Positions 37,966-53,577 of a DNA stretch of 64,000 nucleotides are shown here, in pieces. This DNA is from a virus. The position numbers and the translations under genes are program-made. The stretch spans positions 1 through 64,000 of the IMG/VR virus record IMGVR_UViG_3300018933_000004; one strand, given 5' to 3'. Position 1 is the first letter of the stretch. Each line of letters begins with the position of its first letter. A model generated the notes under the pieces. The model did not search any database. It saw only the letters and a list, made by a program, of their open reading frames with translations, and was not told where the DNA came from.

Positions 37966-40614
37966 ATGACGGACATCAGCGCGACCAGCTTCTTCCGCCA
38001 GGCCAGTGCGGCCGACAGTGGCGGCATCGACTTCGAGCACGAGGAGATCGACACCGGCGGCAGCAAGCGCCCCACCAAGATCCACCTGCATGCCGTCGAC
38101 CCCGACTCCGGCGACCGCATGGGCACCCTCACCTATCACGTACCCCGCCGCAAGGCCGACAAGATCCTCGTCGAGCACCTCGGCACCGAGGAGACCCACC
38201 AGGGCAAGGGCGTCGCCTCCGCCCTCATGGACGAGATGCAGCGCCGCCACCCCGCCACCCCCATAGATCACGGCGACCGCACTGACGCGGGCAAGGGCTG
38301 GTGGAACAAGTACACCGACGGCAAGACCGTCCGACGCGGACGCACCATGGCCTCTCGTACCACGGCCACCGTCCCAGAGACGTACGCGCGCGGGGAAGGC
38401 GAGGACTGGCTGGACCACCAGAACCGCGTCCGGCGCGGCCTGTCTCTCGGTCACCTCACCTACATGCAGGCGCGCGACCACGGCTACAGCGGCGACGCAC
38501 GCCAGGACACACGCGACGACTGGACCGGCCAGCACACCGAGGGCAAAGGCTGGCAGCCGCTTCCGCCCAATCTCTACCACACCACCACCGACGCCGCCGG
38601 AGTCATGGCCCACGGCCTCAAGAGCGGCAACGAACTCGGCCAGAAACGTGGCCACGGCCTGGGCGGCACACCTGAGTGGCTGTCCATGACCGACCGCGAA
38701 GACCACGCCCACAGCATGCTCGACGCCCTGCACGAGTACCACGCCCACCTCAACGGCAAGACCACCTACGCCGACCTGCACCGCGCGGCCCAGAACGCCG
38801 AGGGCGCCGAGAAGCCCTTCCACGACGCGTTCGAGCAGGGCGTCACCGGCGGCCACAACGACCACGCCAAGGACTCCATCCGGCGCGGCAAACGCCTGGA
38901 GCCCGGCTTCGCCTCCTACGACGAGGCCAAGGAGAAGGGCTGGACACCCCACCCGACGCTCCACCGCAACCTCGGAGTCGGCAAGAACGACCAGGAGTTC
39001 GGCACCGGCTGGGAACGCGAACCCACCGTTGAGGAACGCCACGATGAGTACGGCGCCTTCTCCCGCGCCCGCCAGTGGTCCGGCAAGGGCAAGCCGTCGA
39101 TCTTGTTCACCTCCAACGACCGCGAGGAATTCGCCAAGAAAGACCCCTCCAACTTCGCCGTTCTCCACGTCCGCCCCCGGCCCGGTGCCCACGGCTTCCC
39201 CATGAAGACCGAGCACGAGTGGCGCACCGGCACCGGCGACGCCGTCGAGGTCCACGGCGAACCCATCCGCCGCCAGGCCGCCGCCACCAAGCTGTGCCCC
39301 TGCTGCGGCGGCACCGGCGAGCACGACACTGGCTTCGAGTGCTACCACTGCGACGGCGGCCCCGACGACGCCACCTGCGACGGACGCCTCCTCGACGGCG
39401 GCCACAGCAAGACGGCCGCCCTGCGGACGATGCAGCCCGAGGAATACCGGGCCCTCTCCTTCCCTGACCACCCCGGCCGCAGCCTCGACCAGGTCGCCCA
39501 GCGCCTTCAGAAGGCCAGCCCCGAGTACTACACCCAGCTCAAAGAGCACGCTGCACAGCACGGCATCCAGACCCCTGTGCTGCTCGACGGCAGCCAGGTG
39601 ATGGACGGCCACCACCGGCTTTCCGTCGCCCATGAGCTGGGCCTGCCCGTGCCGGTCGGCGACTACAACAACGAGACGCACTACAACCAGGCGATGGACC
39701 ACCCCCTGGCCAAGGAGTGGTACCGCAAGCGCACCGACCTCGGCGTCCGCCGGATCGCCTTCGCCACCCCTGTCCCGGACAACCGCGAGCCCTACCAGCA
39801 CGAGCACCCCTGGCTGCCCCGAGACCACTTCTTCGCCCCCGGCGAAAAGGACCTGGACCCGCGCCTGTTCGACGAGAACGATCGCATGCACCCCATCGTC
39901 CGCCAGCACATCCTCAGCCTGCTCAACGGCTTCTGGGCGCCCAAGTACGGCGACGCCTGGCAGTCCTGGGCCCGCGTCTACCTCGCCGGATCCGAGGCCA
40001 GCCACTTCTACGGCAACGGCGACCTCGACATCCTCATCGGCGTCGACTACGCCCGCGCCCGCGAACACGCCCCAGCCCTCGCCAGCCTCTCCGACGAGGA
40101 GATCAGCACCCACCTCACCGACGAGCTGCGCCACGGCCTCAACGACGACGCCCGCATGCTCCCCGGCCCGGACGGCAAAGAGACCGGCCCCTGGGAAAAT
40201 ACTTGGTATGTGAACGAATCGTCGTTCGATATCAGGGCGATCAAGCCGTACGCCGCCTACGACATCACCCGAGACGAATGGGCCGTCAAGCCGGTAGAGG
40301 TACCTGACGACTTCGGGCCCGAGAAGCTCCCCGAAAGCACTTGGGACGTGTTCGAAGCAGTGCAGAAGCTGATCGGCGCCATCCGGGAACTTCCCGACGG
40401 TGTACGTGAAAGAGAAGGGGCTGCACTGTACGATTACCTCCACACTGACCGCCACAGTGCATTCGGGCCCGAGGGATCGGGCCTCTACGACCCTGCAAAC
40501 GCCGTCTGGAAAGCTCTCGACAAGGCCCCAGGCCAGCCGCTGCAGCAGCTCATCGACTGGAAGCACGCCCACGACGGCGTGGCCGCCGCCACGGACCAGG
40601 AGAAGGCCGCATGA
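37966..40614 (+). CDS. Multi-domain effector-like protein: GNAT, ART-like, zinc, ParB-like and nucleotidyltransferase parts
   Basis: 882 residues; ATG 37966 with GGAGG at 37953-37957. Visible modules: acetyltransferase-like HQGKGVASALMDEM (about 78-91); ADP-ribosyltransferase-like NLYHTTTDAAGVMAHGL (about 202-218) with SILFTSNDREEF later; a DnaJ-type zinc stretch CPCCGGTGEHD / CYHCDGG (about 444-464); ParB/sulfiredoxin-like VMDGHHRLSVA (about 545-555); nucleotidyltransferase YGNGDLDILIGVD (about 681-693). Located just behind terminase, where phages carry MuF-type polytoxins. Likely virion-carried or early-acting host-modifying protein; each domain call rests on a short motif. The stop overlaps the next ATG. 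Confidence 0.65.
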   Translation: MTDISATSFFRQASAADSGGIDFEHEEIDTGGSKRPTKIHLHAVDPDSGDRMGTLTYHVPRRKADKILVEHLGTEETHQGKGVASALMDEMQRRHPATPIDHGDRTDAGKGWWNKYTDGKTVRRGRTMASRTTATVPETYARGEGEDWLDHQNRVRRGLSLGHLTYMQARDHGYSGDARQDTRDDWTGQHTEGKGWQPLPPNLYHTTTDAAGVMAHGLKSGNELGQKRGHGLGGTPEWLSMTDREDHAHSMLDALHEYHAHLNGKTTYADLHRAAQNAEGAEKPFHDAFEQGVTGGHNDHAKDSIRRGKRLEPGFASYDEAKEKGWTPHPTLHRNLGVGKNDQEFGTGWEREPTVEERHDEYGAFSRARQWSGKGKPSILFTSNDREEFAKKDPSNFAVLHVRPRPGAHGFPMKTEHEWRTGTGDAVEVHGEPIRRQAAATKLCPCCGGTGEHDTGFECYHCDGGPDDATCDGRLLDGGHSKTAALRTMQPEEYRALSFPDHPGRSLDQVAQRLQKASPEYYTQLKEHAAQHGIQTPVLLDGSQVMDGHHRLSVAHELGLPVPVGDYNNETHYNQAMDHPLAKEWYRKRTDLGVRRIAFATPVPDNREPYQHEHPWLPRDHFFAPGEKDLDPRLFDENDRMHPIVRQHILSLLNGFWAPKYGDAWQSWARVYLAGSEASHFYGNGDLDILIGVDYARAREHAPALASLSDEEISTHLTDELRHGLNDDARMLPGPDGKETGPWENTWYVNESSFDIRAIKPYAAYDITRDEWAVKPVEVPDDFGPEKLPESTWDVFEAVQKLIGAIRELPDGVREREGAALYDYLHTDRHSAFGPEGSGLYDPANAVWKALDKAPGQPLQQLIDWKHAHDGVAAATDQEKAA

Positions 40615-42377
40615 CCGAGTTCAACGCCGTCGCGTACTTCCGACAGACTGGAGGCATGGCGGAACAGCCTCGCTACTTCCATGGGACTCGTTATCCCTTC
40701 AAGCCCGGGGATCTGATCGAGCCGGGCCGGAAGTCGAACCAGGGGTACGGCCAGGCCAACGACCGGGTCTTCTTCACCCACCGTCCTGAGATCGCCAAGC
40801 ATTTCGCAGACTCTGCCGACGACCCCGAAGGCCACGAGGGTGCCCGCCCCCGGGTGTATGAGGTCGAGCCGACCGGCCCGCACGAGCTGGACACGGACGA
40901 ACTGCCCGAAGACGCTGAGCGCGCAGGCTCTCGCCAGAGCCGCCACCCCCTCCGGGTCGTCCAGGAGCACCACTCCACATGGGAGCCGGACGAGGATGAT
41001 CACTTCGATGCCAGCGAGTTCGAGGACGAAGGGTGCGGGGAGTGCGGCAAGGCCATGACGAAGGAGCCGTGGTGCAAGAACTGTGGTGATCAGCACCACA
41101 CGGTCTGCTGCGAGGAGGGCGATGAGCAGCACCACACGGCATCAGTTTCGATCACCGCGACCGCGTTCTTCAAGAAGACGCACGATGCCCTCGAAGGAGG
41201 CAGCAATGGACGAGCCGACCAGGAAAGCGCCCGAACCGCAGGACAAGGACGGCCACGCCGTCAGCCCGGAGCTGGAGGCGAAGCTGCAGGAGCGGGCCAG
41301 GACGCCGCAGGAGGAGCACCTGCCGTGGGAGCCGATCAAGGAGGAGCTGGGCCTGTAGGCCCGCGCCAGGTCTCCTTCCACCCGGCGGCGAAGAAGGAGC
41401 TGCTCAAGCTCGACGGCGCCAGCCGCAAGCGCGTCGCCGCCACCATCAACGCCCTGCAGCGCGGCGACGAGGGCCTGCAGACCCACGCCCTGACCCAGCC
41501 GCTCAAGGGCTGGAGCTCCACCAAAGCCTCGCGCGGCCACCGCGTCATTCACCGCGACCTCGATGACGGCACCCTGCACATCGGATACATCGGCCTCCAC
41601 GAGTACGACAAGGCCATCAACCGGCTCTCCTCGCTGACGGACTTCTTCCGCACGGCGGACCTGCGGGAGACTGCTTCCGTGGACGACGATTACCGCATGC
41701 AGCACCGGGCTCCCGGCCCGCAGCACGCTCCGCTGCACGACCCGATGACCCACGACGAGTTCGGGCCGTCCGAGACCGTCGACCTCACCCACCTCACTCC
41801 TCGCACCTCGGCCCTGCAGCTGACTGAGCCCGAGGAGCGCCTGCTGCAGCGTGAGGCGGCCGCCGTCGCCCACGACCACGGCGTCATGGTCGCCCTCGTC
41901 CCGCCGCGCGAGATAGCCGAGCAGCTGGCCATGGCCGACGGGCAGCCGGTCGACGACCTGCACATCACTCTGGCCTACCTGGGCAACGTCGCCGACTACC
42001 GCCCTGACCAGCTCGCCCGGCTCCCGAGGGTCGTCGCGGCCTGGGCATCCGGCCAGCGGCCGGTGACCGTCCGGGTCGGCGGAGTCGGCACCTTCAACAA
42101 CGCCTACAAGGACCAGCACGTCCTGTACGCCGCCATGGACATCCCCGGCGGCGCCCAGGTGCACACCAGCCTCGCCCAGCACCTGGAGAGGCACGGCTAC
42201 CGGCTCCCCAGCGAGCACGGATGGACGCCCCACATGACCCTGCGGTACGTCGACCGGCACCACCGGTTCATGCCGCAACTGGACGGACACAACTGGGAAG
42301 CGACCGAGGTGGTCACCTACCTCTGTGGAGAACGCCACCCGGCCTGCCTCGGCATCCGTCCCACCACCACGCTGTAA
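40611..42377 (+). CDS. Multi-domain effector-like protein: Arr ADP-ribosyltransferase, RelE-like and 2H phosphoesterase parts
   Basis: 588-codon open frame, ATGA overlap with the previous gene. Residues 16-120 match rifampin ADP-ribosyltransferase (Arr): RYFHGTRYPFKPGDLIEPG, YEVEPTGPHELD, SRHPLRVV. Cys motifs CGECGKAM/WCKNCGD at 143-160. Residues about 253-340 are RelE/ParE-like (VSFHPAAKKELLKLD, GHRVIHRDLDDG). The C terminus has the two HxT motifs of 2H/LigT phosphoesterases (LHITLAYLG, HMTLRYV). Residues about 199-251 are low-complexity and coincide with an out-of-frame antitoxin-like gene (41206-41358). The RelE part may instead start at GTG 41325 (GAGGAG at 41311), making two separate genes. 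Confidence 0.65.
   Translation: MTEFNAVAYFRQTGGMAEQPRYFHGTRYPFKPGDLIEPGRKSNQGYGQANDRVFFTHRPEIAKHFADSADDPEGHEGARPRVYEVEPTGPHELDTDELPEDAERAGSRQSRHPLRVVQEHHSTWEPDEDDHFDASEFEDEGCGECGKAMTKEPWCKNCGDQHHTVCCEEGDEQHHTASVSITATAFFKKTHDALEGGSNGRADQESARTAGQGRPRRQPGAGGEAAGAGQDAAGGAPAVGADQGGAGPVGPRQVSFHPAAKKELLKLDGASRKRVAATINALQRGDEGLQTHALTQPLKGWSSTKASRGHRVIHRDLDDGTLHIGYIGLHEYDKAINRLSSLTDFFRTADLRETASVDDDYRMQHRAPGPQHAPLHDPMTHDEFGPSETVDLTHLTPRTSALQLTEPEERLLQREAAAVAHDHGVMVALVPPREIAEQLAMADGQPVDDLHITLAYLGNVADYRPDQLARLPRVVAAWASGQRPVTVRVGGVGTFNNAYKDQHVLYAAMDIPGGAQVHTSLAQHLERHGYRLPSEHGWTPHMTLRYVDRHHRFMPQLDGHNWEATEVVTYLCGERHPACLGIRPTTTL
41206..41358 (+). CDS. Antitoxin-like gene nested out of frame
   Basis: 50 codons in the +1 frame of the larger open frame; AAGGAGG at 41194-41200 is well spaced. 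The product ends EEHLPWEPIKEELGL, the C-terminal style of Phd/RelB-type antitoxins (PWE-x2-K-x-ELGL). It stops 9 bp before the first RelE-like codons and overlaps a possible toxin start at GTG 41325. In this interval the large frame encodes only Gly/Ala/Gln-rich sequence, so this frame is the better candidate for the selected one. Confidence 0.6.
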   Translation: MDEPTRKAPEPQDKDGHAVSPELEAKLQERARTPQEEHLPWEPIKEELGL

Positions 42378-46151: not shown

Positions 46152-46517
46152 CAGGGCAGCGCGGACGTACGGGTGGTGCGGTGTGTGGCGGGTCACGGCG
46201 TCCAGTGTGCCCTGGAATCTCCGGCTCCACCGAACGGGCCGGGAAAGGCCGAAGGCCCCCGAACGAGTCAACGGGGGCCTTCGGCTGCTTGGGCGCCTTG
46301 AGAGGTGCCTTCAGCGTTGCGATCCTCGCCCTGGGCGGATGGCTGTCTGCAACACCCCGCATCGGCGGGGACAACTGCAAGCAGTCAGCCGGGACATCCC
46401 CGCTGACGCGGGGGAATCACCTCACGGCGGCAAGGTGACCGGCCCGGTCCCAGGGCCCGTGCCGGTAAAAAGAACTCTAGCGGCTCCGGGCTGTTGGTGC
46501 GGGCGAGTTGGAGAGAT
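46152..46517. other. Intergenic region with terminator and CRISPR-repeat-like hairpins
   Basis: No gene. Terminator at 46248-46285. Then CCCCGC-ATCG-GCGGGG (46355-46370) and CCCCGC-TGAC-GCGGGG (46398-46413); the latter sits in GGGACATCCCCGCTGACGCG (46391-46410) and continues to AATCAC, very like a type I-E CRISPR repeat. Confidence 0.55.
46248..46285. terminator. Bidirectional terminator
   Basis: GCCGAAGGCCCCCG and its exact complement with a 10-nt loop; downstream of the gene ending at 46151. Confidence 0.85.
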
Positions 46518-47939
46518 TCACTCTGCGGGGTGTCGGCGTCCCCGAAGGAAGGGGTAGCGCACTTCAAGGCCGAGGATGACAGTCGGCGGCCGCTGCAGGT
46601 ACCGCCCCCACAGCGTCTCGTCCCGGTCCTGGCTGGGGCCGCGAACCGGCGCAGCTGCGGAGCTTTTCGTGGATCCCTCGTAGTTGTTGCAGGCTGCACA
46701 CAGCAGGCCACGGACGAGTCCGGTGTCGTGGTCGTGGTCTTCGTGGTGCTCGGTACGGCCGGGGAGTATGCCGCACATCGCGCACCGGTTCTGGTGGAAG
46801 GCGAGGAGCCGGTCGACGGGGTGCTGGTCAGGGTCGTACGGCGGCACGGGCCAGGACCAGCAGTCGGGTTCGTAGCTCGCCCAGCGCTGCTCCCAGTCGT
46901 CCCAGCGCTGCTGGTACGCCCGGCACTCGGGGCAGGTGTCTGCCTCTTCGGGGGTGCGGTGGGCGTGCATGGGACTGGCGCCGAGGGTCTCTTCCAGGTC
47001 GCGCTGCATGCGCAGGGCGAGAGGAAGGTCTGTGGGCTGGGGGGTGTCGGTCCAGGTGCCGTCGCCCGCGCGGTGGCGGCGCTTGACGGTCGTGAGGGCG
47101 GCGGGCAGGCCGTCGGTGAAGGGAGTCGGGGAGAGGGCGATCTGGTCGGGTGTGACGCGGTCGGGCAGCAGCCGGTTGTCGCCTGCCGCGAGGACGGCGC
47201 GCAGCGCGGCGGCGGGGGTGACGTGGGGGTCGAGGCGGGCGCCGCTGCGGGAGGTGATGAGGGGTTCGGTGGGGTCGTCGGTGGGTGAGGGGACGCGGTG
47301 GGGGAGGTAGGCGCGGATGGCCCGTTCGAGCTCGCGGCTGATGCGGTAGACCTTGACGCCCTCGCCCTTGGGGAAGGGGGCTCGGACCTGCGGGGGGCGG
47401 TTGTCGAGGAGGGGGATGCTGTCGAGGTTGAGGCCGACGATCTGCCGGGGGCGGAAGCCGTCGAGCATGGCGTAGACGAGTGTCTTGTCGCGGTGGCCGT
47501 GGCGGGCGCCGCTGGCGGCGTGCAGCCGGGCGAGGAAGGCGATGGCGATGGTCTGGCGGCGGTCGAGGGCGGGGGTACGGGGCAGGTCGGTGGTGCGCAG
47601 CCGGGCGGGGTCGAAGGGCATCTCGTCCAGGCGGCCGGTGCGGACGGCGTAGTCGTAGAAGCTGGACAGGGCGCTGAGGCGGCGCATGCGGCTGTGGGCT
47701 GAGCCCTTGAGGCGGTCGCGGGCGCGGCGGCTGTGGGTGGCGAAGTCGGCCCAGGTCTGGACGTGGGCCTCGCTGGCGTTCCAGGCGCCGATGCCCATGG
47801 CGTCCTCAATGAAGTCGAGCCAGGCGGTGACGTCCTCGCGGTAGCGGGCGGGCGTGGTGCCCTGGAAGGCGCGGTCCTGACGGCCGCGCTGGTGCTCGGT
47901 GAGCCACTCTTCCATGACGGCGTAGGGGTCGTCGGCCAA
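46518..47939 (-). CDS. Fusion of a degenerate tyrosine-recombinase-like region and endonuclease VII/HNH
   Basis: 473 residues; TTG start at 47939 with GGGGAGGAT upstream. The N-terminal 110 residues look like a phage-integrase core-binding domain (DRLKGSAHSRMRRLSALSS). LDGFRPRQIVGLNLDSI resembles the first catalytic Arg motif, but HxxR and the Tyr are not seen. The C terminus is endonuclease VII-like: NRCAMCGILPGRTEHHEDHD, HDTGLVRGLLCAACNNYEG. A zinc pair CPECRAY precedes it. Probably a structure-specific nuclease using the recombinase-like part to bind DNA. Promoter lies in the left arm of the inverted repeat upstream. Confidence 0.7.
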   Translation of the reverse strand: MADDPYAVMEEWLTEHQRGRQDRAFQGTTPARYREDVTAWLDFIEDAMGIGAWNASEAHVQTWADFATHSRRARDRLKGSAHSRMRRLSALSSFYDYAVRTGRLDEMPFDPARLRTTDLPRTPALDRRQTIAIAFLARLHAASGARHGHRDKTLVYAMLDGFRPRQIVGLNLDSIPLLDNRPPQVRAPFPKGEGVKVYRISRELERAIRAYLPHRVPSPTDDPTEPLITSRSGARLDPHVTPAAALRAVLAAGDNRLLPDRVTPDQIALSPTPFTDGLPAALTTVKRRHRAGDGTWTDTPQPTDLPLALRMQRDLEETLGASPMHAHRTPEEADTCPECRAYQQRWDDWEQRWASYEPDCWSWPVPPYDPDQHPVDRLLAFHQNRCAMCGILPGRTEHHEDHDHDTGLVRGLLCAACNNYEGSTKSSAAAPVRGPSQDRDETLWGRYLQRPPTVILGLEVRYPFLRGRRHPAE

Positions 47940-48284
47940 GGTGATCCTCCCCGGATACAGCTTCTTTAGACAATTGCCAAGCCATCACCCTAGATGCCGT
48001 CGTGGTGCCCGTGCACGGAACAGTGCGGGGCGGCGCCGCGCGCGCACTTCTCTGAGAGGGGCGTGGCTCGGCGATTGTCTAAAGAAGCTGTATCCGGGGA
48101 AAACGCGGTGACACCCGGGGTGGTTCACGAAGGATCGACGGCTGGCGGACCGCGTGGCGGAGAACCCGATCCTCCCACGGCCAGCACGGCGAACGCCAGA
48201 AACGCCGCGCCGTATCGTGTGGTCCATGCCCCGGCCTGCGTCAGTTCCTCCCCGACGGCTGACCGCTGCCGATAAGCTCCCTCC
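47940..48284. promoter_or_regulatory. Control region with 26-bp perfect inverted repeat
   Basis: Arms at 47949-47974 and 48074-48099 are exact complements, flanking 99 bp; weaker homology extends about 16 bp inward. On the minus strand TTGGCA (47980-47975), 17 bp, TATCCG forms a promoter for the recombinase-like gene; the right arm has TCGGCG in place of TTGGCA. The interior and the 48100-48284 flank hold no convincing gene. GATAAG at about 48271-48276 may be the -10 of the next gene. Confidence 0.7.
47949..48099. repeat. Long inverted repeat (26-bp arms)
   Basis: The left arm begins CCCCGGATACAG and ends AGACAAT; the right arm is its exact complement. The arms are AT-richer than the surroundings. 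Confidence 0.9.
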
Positions 48285-48698
48285 ATGAGGAGCACCGAGC
48301 CCGATCAGCCCGCCGACCCCGCCGACTTCCCTCCCGAAGTGCGGGACGCCCTGCGCAAGAGGAGTGAGCGCGGCCCCGTGGTCGATATGGCCACAGGCGA
48401 GCGCGTCGCCGAGGACGGCCGCCTGGTCTCCGACGAGCAGCTGGTCGCCTGTCTCGAATGCGCCCGCGCCATCGCCCTGGGCTGGTGGGGCGCCATCGCA
48501 CGCCACTTCGGCAATCCCGATGCCCCTGTCTGCGCCCTGTGCGGCGAAGGCGAAGCCACCCTCACCCCCACCCAGTGGTTCGCCCAGGTCACCCAGCTCA
48601 TGCAGGCTCACATCGCCGCCGGGAAGCACCACAGCTGGCGTGAGGACTCTCTCACGCGCCTCGGCATCGCCAGCCCGGGAGCAGACGGCCGTGGATGA
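48285..48698 (+). CDS. Hypothetical protein with Cys motifs
   Basis: 137 residues; ATG 48285 about 9 nt after a GATAAG -10-like hexamer, so possibly leaderless. LVACLECARAIALGWW and APVCALCGEGEATLTP give a four-Cys zinc site. Stop overlaps the next start by 8 nt. Function unknown. Confidence 0.55.
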   Translation: MRSTEPDQPADPADFPPEVRDALRKRSERGPVVDMATGERVAEDGRLVSDEQLVACLECARAIALGWWGAIARHFGNPDAPVCALCGEGEATLTPTQWFAQVTQLMQAHIAAGKHHSWREDSLTRLGIASPGADGRG

Positions 48699-49065
48699 CG
48701 TCGACCTCCTGCAGCACGCCACCCGCTTGCACAACGAGTGGCAGCACACGGCCTACCTCACCCTCGGCCGTCTGCTCAGCCGTGCTCACCGGGACGGCCT
48801 GCCCCCGCTCGAATGGACTGTCCTGCCCCACGGCGCGCTGCGCGGCGAGGTGCCCCACCGCGACTCTCGCGGTGAGGAGTACACCCCGGCGACGGGCCTG
48901 GCACTGTACGAGCGCTGGTGTGCCTACCTCGGGCCGGTCAAGCATGAGAAGGACAGGGTCTACTCCTTGCTGGGCAAGACGATCAAGACCGCGCGGGCCA
49001 GTGGCGCCCAGCCGTGGATGAAGGACACTCACATCGTCCTCCGCGTCGAGCTACGCGAGGAATGA
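48691..49065 (+). CDS. Hypothetical protein
   Basis: 124 residues from GTG 48691. Mixed alpha/beta; LQHATRLHNEWQHTAYLTL at the start and THIVLRVELREE at the end. Translationally coupled to the upstream Cys protein. Similar short proteins occur on Streptomyces elements; no motif recognised. Confidence 0.55.
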   Translation: MDDVDLLQHATRLHNEWQHTAYLTLGRLLSRAHRDGLPPLEWTVLPHGALRGEVPHRDSRGEEYTPATGLALYERWCAYLGPVKHEKDRVYSLLGKTIKTARASGAQPWMKDTHIVLRVELREE

Positions 49066-49079
49066 CACCACCGGCGCGG

Positions 49080-49113
49080 CGATAGTCTGAGCCCACTCCA
49101 TCCCGCCAAGGAG
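49080..49113 (+). promoter_or_regulatory. Candidate -10 and leader box
   Basis: GATAGTCT at 49081-49088 followed by TCCCGCCAAGGAG at 49101-49113, which includes the Shine-Dalgarno for ATG 49120. Confidence 0.55.
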
Positions 49114-49119
49114 ACGCTC

Positions 49120-49638
49120 ATGAAGCCGCTGTCCGAGGAGGAACCCGTGACAGCCAAAGCACACATCCCCACCCGCATGTGCCCGCACCCCTGGTGCCGC
49201 CCCGTCCACGGCGTCACCGCCGCCATGGTCGTCCTCGCCCTGCTCCCCTCCCTGGGGAACATCTGGCTCTGGATCGCCCTGCCCGCGCTCGGCGTCCTCG
49301 TGTACGCCCTTGTCCGGCTGCTGGTCGACCGCAACGCCGACCGTGATCAGGAGCACCGCGAGGAGATCGCCGCCCGGGACGGCATTCAGCTCGCCCGCCG
49401 GGCCATCCGCCCGGCCTGGGCCCGTGCTGCCGTCACCCTCGACATCCTGCTCCTGTTCGGCTCCGCCGCCGTCCTCGCCTTGACCCTGAGCACCGACCCC
49501 AGCCTCCCCGCAGAAGGACTCCAGGCGACCCTGAGCGACCTCCCCCTCTTGCTGCCCCCGCTGGCGCTGATCCTCGTCATCGAGTACTGCCACAAGAAGG
49601 CCACGGTCGTTGAGCAGCCCGTCGTCGGCAAGGGGTAG
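49120..49638 (+). CDS. Four-TM membrane protein
   Basis: 172 residues. Hydrophobic spans VTAAMVVLALLPSLG, IWLWIALPALGVLVYALV, VTLDILLLFGSAAVLALTL and LPLLLPPLALILVIEY, with a charged cytoplasmic loop (DRNADRDQEHREEIAARD). Cys/His near the N terminus (MCPHPWCRPVHG). Unknown function. Confidence 0.6.
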   Translation: MKPLSEEEPVTAKAHIPTRMCPHPWCRPVHGVTAAMVVLALLPSLGNIWLWIALPALGVLVYALVRLLVDRNADRDQEHREEIAARDGIQLARRAIRPAWARAAVTLDILLLFGSAAVLALTLSTDPSLPAEGLQATLSDLPLLLPPLALILVIEYCHKKATVVEQPVVGKG

Positions 49639-52234: not shown

Positions 52235-53182
52235 TCAGGCCGCCATCAGGAACTTGGCCAGGTCGTACACCGGCGAGGCGTCCACGTCGTTGCGGGCCAG
52301 GTCGTAGCGGTTCGTCGTCCTGGGGTCGGCATGGCCGAGGAGCCGCTGGACGTTGCGCAGCGGCACCTTGGCGTCCAGCATCAGCGTGGCGCAGGTGTGC
52401 CGCAGGCCATGAGGGCTGATCACTTTGATGTGGGCGCCCCGGCAGGAACGGGCGACGATGACGGAGATGCGCCGGTTGGTCAGCCGGGCGCCGTCGGCGC
52501 ACAGGATCAACGCATCGTCCGGCCTGCGGTTCGGCCGCCGGGCGTGGTGGGCGTCGATCGCCCGCGCGGCCTCGGGCGGCACGACCAGCGTCTGGACCTT
52601 CGTCCGTTTGCGGGTGATCTTCAGGGTGCGGTGGCCGCGCGCGCGGCCGTAGTCCTGCACGTTGGCCTTCTCCAGCTCCGACGAGCGCAGGCCCATCCCC
52701 AGCAGCACCTCGACGACGGCGGCGTCGACCGGACCGTACTCCCAGGCCACCGCGCGGAGGGCGCGGGCCTCGGCCTTGTCCAGGCCGAGCGTCTGGGACT
52801 CGTCGGACACCTCAACGCGGTGCTTCTTGCGGTACGGCGAGCGCCGAATCTCGTACGCCTGCTCGTACTCGTCCAGCCCGTACTCGTACCAGCCGCTCAT
52901 GGCGCTGAGCGCCTGGTTCACCGAGGAGGGAGCGAGCACCTCCTGCAGGTCGGCCGACCACTGCGCGGAATGCTCCCGGCGGGCCGCCAGCGGGGAGACG
53001 CCGTTGTCGAGGGTCCAGTCGAACCAGTTCTCGATGCACCGCTTGTAGGCGGTGCGGGTGTGGGCGTTGCGGTGCTCCAGCAGCCACTGCCGCTCGATCT
53101 CCCCGCACACCCGGCGGATGTACGCCTCGTGCTCGTCGAGCAGCAGCGCACCCGCCGGGGCGACGACCAGGTCAGTGGTCAT
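52235..53182 (-). CDS. Tyrosine integrase
   Basis: 315 residues from ATG 53182 (ATGA overlap with upstream gene). N-terminal core-binding domain (HTRTAYKRCIENWFDW). Catalytic set complete: Arg in MGLRSSELEK, Lys in RKRTKVQTL, HGLRH, LGHADPRTT and Tyr in NRYDL. Likely integrates and excises the element or resolves multimers. Last structural gene of the GntR-headed operon; attP is expected nearby, perhaps in 52158-52234. Confidence 0.9.
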   Translation of the reverse strand: MTTDLVVAPAGALLLDEHEAYIRRVCGEIERQWLLEHRNAHTRTAYKRCIENWFDWTLDNGVSPLAARREHSAQWSADLQEVLAPSSVNQALSAMSGWYEYGLDEYEQAYEIRRSPYRKKHRVEVSDESQTLGLDKAEARALRAVAWEYGPVDAAVVEVLLGMGLRSSELEKANVQDYGRARGHRTLKITRKRTKVQTLVVPPEAARAIDAHHARRPNRRPDDALILCADGARLTNRRISVIVARSCRGAHIKVISPHGLRHTCATLMLDAKVPLRNVQRLLGHADPRTTNRYDLARNDVDASPVYDLAKFLMAA

Positions 53183-53577
53183 GAGGTGCGTCCGGGGCGT
53201 CGAGAGGGAGGGATGGGGATGTGGTAGTAGGTAATCGCGGTGAGGTCGACGGAGATCTCGATCCGGGGTGGCCACGGATCACCTCGCCGTGCCCCTCGTT
53301 TGGCGGTACTGACCCTCCACCTGTTGCTGTGGAGCCGTACTCCCCAACCCCTCACCGTAAGGATCTCTCGGAGTAGGTCCCGCAACTCGCGCCGCGCCCG
53401 TCTGTCGCTGCACCGGTTGGGCTGGCTCTTGGCGTACGCAGCCACTGCCGCCCGCCGGATGGCCATGTGTGCGACGTCATCCGGCACCAGGGGAGGAAAG
53501 TCCTCCACCGGCTTGCGGTAGTGCCGGAGGTTGCGCTTCTCATCCCAGCCGTACTCCGCCAGGTCCTCGGCGGTCAC
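53179..53577 (-). CDS. Hypothetical protein coupled to integrase
   Basis: 132 residues. ATGA/GTGA overlaps on both sides. N terminus acidic (TAEDLAEYGWDEKRN), then helical Ala-rich and a basic beta C-terminal half (GWGVRLHSNRWRVS). Could be an excisionase-like partner by position, but it lacks a clear HTH. Confidence 0.5.
   Translation of the reverse strand: MTAEDLAEYGWDEKRNLRHYRKPVEDFPPLVPDDVAHMAIRRAAVAAYAKSQPNRCSDRRARRELRDLLREILTVRGWGVRLHSNRWRVSTAKRGARRGDPWPPRIEISVDLTAITYYHIPIPPSRRPGRTS

What the first reader, a model, noticed from the sequence alone, without database searches (positions are those of the whole stretch)
47949..48099. 26-bp perfect inverted repeat carrying half a promoter in each arm: possible invertible switch
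The arms (47949-47974, 48074-48099) carry the spacer and -10 (TATCCG) of a promoter. The matching -35 lies just inside the loop: TTGGCA on the left (toward the recombinase-like gene), TCGGCG on the right. Inverting the 99-bp interior would move the good -35 to face right. The adjacent gene encodes a recombinase-like/endonuclease VII fusion. A simpler alternative is a duplicated operator for divergent promoters.
Basis: partly seen in the sequence, partly recalled or inferred. Interest (0 to 1): 0.8.

Follow-up and report, generated by a model that had tools for sequence, protein, structure and literature searches.

The report
Paired inverted sites beside dead recombinase
Two matching DNA sites facing each other lie beside a gene for a recombinase-like protein that has lost its cutting parts; related Streptomyces plasmids keep the pair and show the piece between flipped in some lineages, so it looks more like the docking site of a phage-type regulator than a fast genetic switch.

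Summary
The inverted repeat is real: 26/26 nt perfect arms, a longer 44-nt imperfect stem, the only copies in the 79-kb record. It belongs to a conserved module. In 70 of 78 loci analysed in Streptomyces/Kitasatospora plasmids and virus contigs, a gene for a truncated XerC/D-like tyrosine recombinase lies near two inverted arms around a 72-102 bp interior; at least ten further homologues outside those 78 lack it. Arm sequences differ between plasmids, yet both arms change together, almost without mismatch or wobble. The interior is conserved but lies in either orientation (37 versus 26 of 63 scored rows; at least 6 changes on the tree). So inversion has happened repeatedly, but orientation follows clades (shuffled labels need 15-25 changes) and near-identical plasmids agree: no sign of a fast switch. 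The half-promoter reading fails: that motif is not conserved, and in relatives the likely promoter lies outside the arm whichever way the interior points. The protein lacks the second catalytic His/Arg pair and the Tyr; its model resembles active recombinases and also dead-recombinase phage repressors (MrpR, SroF). Best reading: paired operators of such a regulator, with rare, probably near-neutral inversions. Binding and function are untested.

The parts
47949..47974 (-). left (gene-proximal) arm of the inverted pair; core CTTTAGACAATTGCC at 47964-47978
   Evidence: core found only at the two arms in 64 kb at up to 3 mismatches
48074..48099 (+). right (distal) arm, exact reverse complement of the left arm; core with one change at 48070-48084
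47948..47991 (.). left side of the extended 44-nt imperfect inverted repeat (89%)
48057..48100 (.). right side of the extended 44-nt imperfect inverted repeat
47975..48073 (.). interior (99 bp) between the perfect arms; in the majority ('F') orientation here; inverted in relatives such as L005, L050, pSAM1 (L075), L118
48023..48066 (+). conserved interior block (GTGCGGGGCGGCGCC...GCGCGCG..CTTCTCT.AG.GGG.GTGG)
   Evidence: alignments of 54 and 34 interiors after bringing all to one orientation
46518..47939 (-). gene for a 473-aa protein: truncated tyrosine-recombinase (XerC/D-like) part, about residues 1-270, plus C-terminal Endonuclease VII (HNH) domain at 375-427; TTG start, GGAGG 6-7 nt upstream

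Best explanation
The arms are two inverted copies of an asymmetric operator of about 15-18 bp, bound by the protein of the neighbouring gene: a tyrosine-recombinase-fold DNA-binding protein that has lost its catalytic residues, like the phage repressors MrpR (SPbeta) and SroF (phi3T). Binding to both arms, probably joining them by a short loop over the conserved GC-rich interior, regulates the gene's own promoter just outside the proximal arm, and so the plasmid/prophage state. Shown: the conserved pair, co-changing arms, linkage to the gene, loss of catalytic residues, the fold resemblance, occurrence of both interior orientations. Inferred: the binding, the looping, autoregulation, the role in maintaining the plasmid/lysogenic state. 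The interior is now and then inverted (at least 6 times in the sampled tree) by recombination or template switching between the identical arms; as the arms are symmetric and the promoter lies outside, this is probably close to neutral.
For: Arm pair in 70 of 78 analysed loci, directly upstream of the gene (start-codon distance 9-47 nt) in 60. On 34 distinct elements 17 of 18 arm pairs have changes on both sides, 137 such cells against 37 in shuffles, only 10 cells with a one-sided (wobble) change and 90.8% of 598 cells paired: two identical duplex sites rather than a folded RNA. Only these two sites exist in the window, in pSLE1 and CP134214, CP109265 and G002. XerC/D profiles match only positions 10-245 of about 290-300; box II reads TADxIAHTG or TPDxIALSP in place of H..R. 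Foldseek/VIA: XerH, XerA, XerD, Cre at Z 13-15.6, SroF at Z 12.3 and 12.0, MrpR/YopR at Z 11.9 and 10.2. MrpR is a published precedent of a dead tyrosine recombinase acting as master repressor (PMC10516654, passages). In pSLE1 the gene lies in a leftward block next to a rightward early/replication block, a usual place for a lysogeny regulator.
Against: No binding data. The repressor fold matches rank below active recombinases and the Z values are tied within the superfamily. MrpR has many sites; here only two are found, so it could control little beyond its own locus. In L016, L017, L019, L023, L033, L059 and L086 the pair is not directly upstream of the gene, G244 has the pair without any detectable gene, and at least ten homologues outside the 78, plus 8 of the 78, have the gene without the pair. 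The conservation of the interior is not explained by an operator pair alone.
Confidence: 0.55

Rival explanations
1. A working but slow or conditional inversion element: an active tyrosine recombinase (a plasmid-borne full-length integrase or a host enzyme), perhaps with the truncated protein as partner, inverts the interior at particular stages (for example induction), and orientation changes expression of the gene.
For: Both orientations exist with unchanged flanks: L049 versus L050 interior scores 22 same / 72 flipped while the 250-bp gene-side flank scores 366 / 25; at least 6 changes on the tree. Arms resemble tyrosine-recombinase core sites in size. A full-length tyrosine recombinase lies within a few kb in the window (52235-53275) and in many relatives.
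Against: Orientation is clade-coherent (6 changes against a shuffled mean of 20.3) and all near-identical pairs agree. The full-length recombinases next door are not one family (only L013, L075 and L082 are close; L081 has a serine recombinase), whereas arms differ from plasmid to plasmid, so no common enzyme is evident. The promoter is outside the arms.
Confidence: 0.17
2. A DNA secondary-structure element: the arms form a cruciform or hairpin on single strands (replication origin, priming or stalling site); template switching inside the hairpin both inverts the loop and keeps the arms perfect.
For: Perfect arms of variable length (9-27 nt, in the window well beyond the shared core) and interior ends that are themselves partly complementary. 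Plastid genomes show small loop inversions of 5-50 bp between 11-24 bp inverted repeats (PMC12928735, passages). Orientation-independent function would tolerate flips.
Against: The arms share a sequence core (about CTTTA-NNN-AACAG or TTACNNAACCTCGG by clade) that tracks the clade of the linked protein, which structure alone would not require; interior length (median 88) is larger than the plastid loops; no replication evidence.
Confidence: 0.15
3. An attachment or resolution site for a tyrosine recombinase (compare the CTXphi attP hairpin stem used by XerC), with inversion as a by-product.
For: Arm-gap-arm size and the Xer-like protein next to it; CTXphi attP is a hairpin stem of the single-stranded genome (PMC4439123, passages).
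Against: Arm sequences vary far too much between plasmids for one host Xer pair; no chromosomal partner site was found in the records searched except two direct copies of one arm type on another contig of G003, which do not look like an attL/attR pair.
Confidence: 0.06
4. A structured RNA leader or attenuator.
For: The stem is long and near the start codon.
Against: Both orientations of the interior are found; arm pairs show 137 two-sided against 10 one-sided (wobble) changes; no Rfam family in 46500-49500 (best: HgcC, 17.2 bits against a gathering score of 50); the likely promoter in relatives lies downstream of the element with the start codon 6-7 nt after the -10.
Confidence: 0.04

Closest known systems
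MrpR (YopR), master repressor of Bacillus prophage SPbeta, and SroF of phi3T
   Same: Tyrosine-recombinase fold without a working catalytic set; encoded by a prophage-type element; presumed DNA-binding regulator.
   Different: Here the protein is cut off before the nucleophilic Tyr (MrpR keeps Y304 and K169 but lacks the Arg/His residues), keeps Arg I, is fused to Endonuclease VII in the window, L005 and L007, and has two inverted sites with a conserved, invertible interior rather than many scattered repeats; Z values also fit active recombinases.
Tyrosine-recombinase invertible elements (fim-, C. difficile- or FLP-type)
   Same: Short inverted arms around a small segment found in both orientations, recombinase-like gene alongside.
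   Different: No active recombinase in the conserved gene, orientation clade-coherent, promoter outside the segment. fim and C. difficile are recalled, not tested; FLP from passages of PMC5495485.
Hairpin-associated small inversions of plastid genomes
   Same: Inversion of a loop between 11-24 bp inverted repeats over evolutionary time (PMC12928735, passages).
   Different: Loop larger, arms and interior conserved and linked to a specific protein family.
pZL12/pSLE1/pSAM1 type Streptomyces plasmid-prophages
   Same: Carriers of the module: pSLE1 (L013), pSAM1 (L075) and many 85-94 kb circular plasmids; pSLE1 is described as syntenic with pZL12 (PMC4487206, passages).
   Different: The element is not mentioned in the passages that I read; ZL12 itself matched only in the Endonuclease VII part.

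Membership tests
Invertible DNA switch (site-specific) | Inverted recombination sites around the segment | tested here: met
   Perfect arms
Invertible DNA switch (site-specific) | Both orientations exist | tested here: met
   Across relatives: 37 F / 26 R of 63 scored rows
Invertible DNA switch (site-specific) | Orientation changes within a population or between near-identical genomes | tested here: inconclusive
   No difference in the near-identical sets compared (e.g. L076/L077, L104/L106, L119/L120, L094-L096, L009/L085); no reads available
Invertible DNA switch (site-specific) | Promoter inside the segment that turns with it | tested here: not met
   Scan empty; likely promoter outside the arm in 24 of 38 loci, both orientations
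Active tyrosine recombinase | Catalytic R, K, H, R, H/W, Y | tested here: not met
   Arg I kept (GLRP/GFRP); Lys variable; box II H..R replaced by D..A; no C-terminal H/W and Y
MrpR/SroF-type dead-recombinase phage repressor | Tyrosine-recombinase fold | tested here: met
   pLDDT mostly 80-95 for residues 1-270; Z 10-12.3 to SroF and MrpR/YopR, 13-15.6 to active enzymes
MrpR/SroF-type dead-recombinase phage repressor | Loss of catalytic residues | tested here: met
MrpR/SroF-type dead-recombinase phage repressor | Many copies of the operator in the phage genome | tested here: not met
   Only the two arms in the window (<=3 mismatches) and in pSLE1 (<=2 mismatches). Hence 'works like', not 'is a member'
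MrpR/SroF-type dead-recombinase phage repressor | Binds its operator and maintains lysogeny | not testable with these tools
   needs binding and genetic assays
Structured RNA (Rfam) | Match to a described family; wobble-tolerant covariation | tested here: not met
   No family above threshold; 10 one-sided against 137 two-sided changes
CTXphi-type attP / Xer-exploiting element | dif-like sites used by host XerC/D | not tested
   No dif search was made; arm diversity between plasmids speaks against it

The most novel reading that the evidence does not exclude
A family of catalytically incomplete, Xer-derived proteins on Streptomyces phage-plasmids has kept a two-core-site DNA element that is still inverted by an unidentified partner recombinase; the element works as a slow, heritable orientation memory (set per lineage, perhaps reset on induction or transfer) that tunes the plasmid/lysogeny regulator.
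Probability: 0.12. Interest if true: 0.8.

Novelty: new variant of a known kind. Interest (0 to 1): 0.55.

Why it matters
Dead tyrosine recombinases as phage regulators are known from Bacillus phages; this would extend the idea to a widespread group of actinobacterial phage-plasmids (pSAM1, pSLE1 and relatives) whose maintenance and induction are poorly understood, and gives a compact, testable protein-site pair. The recurrent inversion of a small conserved segment between co-changing arms also makes a natural record of how short inverted repeats flip and stay identical, with or without an enzyme.

Tried and rejected
Phage collection by DNA: no match. Single-protein scan of genome contigs: none; of viral contigs: only an Endonuclease VII relative (L003). 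Alignment A4 in viral contigs: none. Pattern scan of viral contigs gave two AT-rich chance matches (L040, L042: no homologue by tblastn), dropped; in 392 Streptomyces genomes it gave one (L074). Family-wide search with A5: 2 of 394 genomes. Structured RNA and 'one conserved partner recombinase' did not hold. Global-regulator idea: no further operator copies in the window or pSLE1. Extra copies of one arm type in G003 (L125) are tandem, degenerate ~120-bp intergenic repeats, not followed further. The GC-skew turn near 46-47 kb goes with a change of gene direction and was not taken as an origin. Replication-origin reading could not be tested; the pZL12 paper is not held.

Rows dropped or set by hand: the 78 loci were chosen by me from all fetched; ten arm-pair positions there were entered by hand from earlier calls (L004, L016, L017, L018, L019, L023, L024, L033, L059, L086). 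Homologues outside the 78 that I looked at and that showed no pair include L021, L045, L046, L056, L058, L061, L062, L063, L065, L066; L025 and L053 are cut by contig ends. L019 and L024 were left out of the tree (start set wrongly, 2-residue protein); L008, L009, L085, L010 and L057 were left out of the orientation count as ambiguous or distant. Many of the 78 are the same plasmid seen in two collections (e.g. L013/L105, L075/L090, L047/L103, L052/L113, L054/L112, L051/L092, L079/L097, L083/L122); without 15 such near-duplicates 48 rows still need 6 changes. Some single F/R comparisons are indecisive (L048 versus L094: 23/24; L101 versus L090: 35/38); those orientations rest on the network of all comparisons.

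Full report
What is there. The window is part of a 79,454-bp virus record whose relatives lie in Streptomyces and Kitasatospora plasmids. The two arms 47949-47974 and 48074-48099 are perfect reverse complements, embedded in a 44-nt imperfect inverted repeat, and unique in the record. The gene to the left (46518-47939, minus) encodes a Phage_int_SAM_1-type N-terminal part and a C-terminal Endonuclease VII domain.

The pair is conserved as an arrangement. In relatives found by DNA, protein and profile searches an inverted pair with other sequence but the same layout lies near the homologous gene. In the set of 78 loci that I compiled, 70 have it: 60 directly upstream (arm 9-47 nt from the start codon, median 38) and 10 entered by hand from earlier calls, most of them further away; interior 72-102 bp, median 88. 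Eight of the 78 lack it (L007, L011, L014, L020, L022, L035, L087, L116), and so do at least ten further homologues outside the 78. Control windows reach the same score (12 or more) in 0.66% of 1,817 cases, the directly scanned loci in 54 of 68. In L086 the pair lies upstream of an AAA ATPase gene instead, and genome G244 has the pair (L074) but no detectable gene. So linkage to the gene is strong but not absolute.

The arms change together. On an alignment of 34 distinct elements (A7), 18 arm pairs give 598 cells; 90.8% are paired, 137 cells differ on both sides from the commonest pair (37 in shuffles, none of 500 as high), and only 10 on one side. A folded RNA would be expected to tolerate wobble pairs; here the two duplex copies are simply kept identical. 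Arm type goes with the clade of the linked protein: for instance AACTTTACGGAACAGAC in L012 and L016-L018, ACTTTATACAAAAGCC in L004 and L023, AACCTCGG types in the pSAM1/pSLE1 clade.

The interior inverts. When all interiors are brought to one orientation they align across clades around GTGCGGGGCGG...GCGCGCG...CTTCTCC.AGTGGGTGG. Relative to the gene they lie both ways. Example: L049 and L050 share the 250-bp gene-side flank in the same sense (366 against 25) while the interior matches only flipped (72 against 22; null 99th percentile 35). Of 63 rows with protein and orientation, 37 are F and 26 R; the tree needs 6 changes, shuffled labels 15-25 (mean 20.3, 300 shuffles); with 15 near-duplicates removed, 48 rows still need 6. 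The tree is a quick one with several long branches, so 6 is a rough minimum. Inversion is therefore recurrent, but orientation is inherited by clades; near-identical plasmids do not differ. That is against a rapidly flipping switch, although a minority orientation inside a culture cannot be excluded without reads.

The promoter. In 24 of 38 loci a hexamer NANNNT ends 6 or 7 nt before the start codon (4% of control positions), often with TTGATC or TTGACC 16-18 nt upstream; this promoter-like pair lies outside the proximal arm and is present with either orientation of the interior. The window is among the 14 loci without it; its TTG start has GGAGG in front.

The protein. XerC/XerD profiles match the family only up to about position 245 of 290-300. 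Arg of box I is kept, Lys is variable, the box II His and Arg are Asp and Ala, and no His/Trp and Tyr follow. The predicted model (pLDDT mostly 80-95 over residues 1-270, poor beyond) resembles XerH, XerA, XerD, Cre and lambda Int (Z up to 15.6) and, a little lower, the repressors SroF (12.3, 12.0) and MrpR/YopR (11.9, 10.2). The assignment of catalytic positions of XerC beyond these calls is recalled. For MrpR, passages of PMC10516654 state that it has a tyrosine-recombinase fold, has lost recombinase function and binds a repeated element to maintain lysogeny. In pSLE1 the gene sits in a leftward block between late genes and a rightward block with replication and partition genes, which suits a lysogeny-type regulator; this is inference.

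Which enzyme could invert? The full-length recombinases near the gene belong to different families, one of them a serine recombinase. No common invertase is evident, and low-rate template switching at the arms, as described for plastid loops (PMC12928735, passages), would suffice. The arms being symmetric and the promoter outside, such flips may be almost neutral.

Verdict. Observation confirmed. Interpretation partly supported: inversion is real on the evolutionary scale, a promoter switch is not supported. Best reading: a paired operator of a dead-recombinase regulator, confidence about 0.55. I found no description of this element in ten searches of the open library, which does not hold most subscription papers. 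Papers seen: passages of PMC10516654, PMC12928735, PMC4439123, PMC5495485, PMC4487206, PMC11302927; outline and abstract of PMC7157519; the rest only in search listings.

Noticed in passing
window 40611-42377 (+): A 588-aa ORF combines a match to rifampin ADP-ribosyltransferase (Arr-ms) with a 2'-5' RNA ligase/LigT phosphoesterase domain.
   Followed up: no
L125 (G003 contig 50), 1938-2249: Three tandem degenerate repeats of about 120 bp, two of which carry exactly the arm sequence of that genome's plasmid-type element in direct orientation, between a hydantoinase/dihydroorotase-like and an SDR-like gene; possible second target or relic.
   Followed up: partly
L005, L007 and window: Only these near relatives fuse the truncated recombinase to Endonuclease VII, a Holliday-junction/HNH-type nuclease; L007 has lost the arm pair.
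   Followed up: partly
L116, upstream of 967: The proximal arm and the start of the interior are present but the rest is replaced by other sequence, so the pair is broken there.
   Followed up: no
window about 46-47 kb: Cumulative GC skew turns close to this locus, together with a change of gene direction.
   Followed up: no
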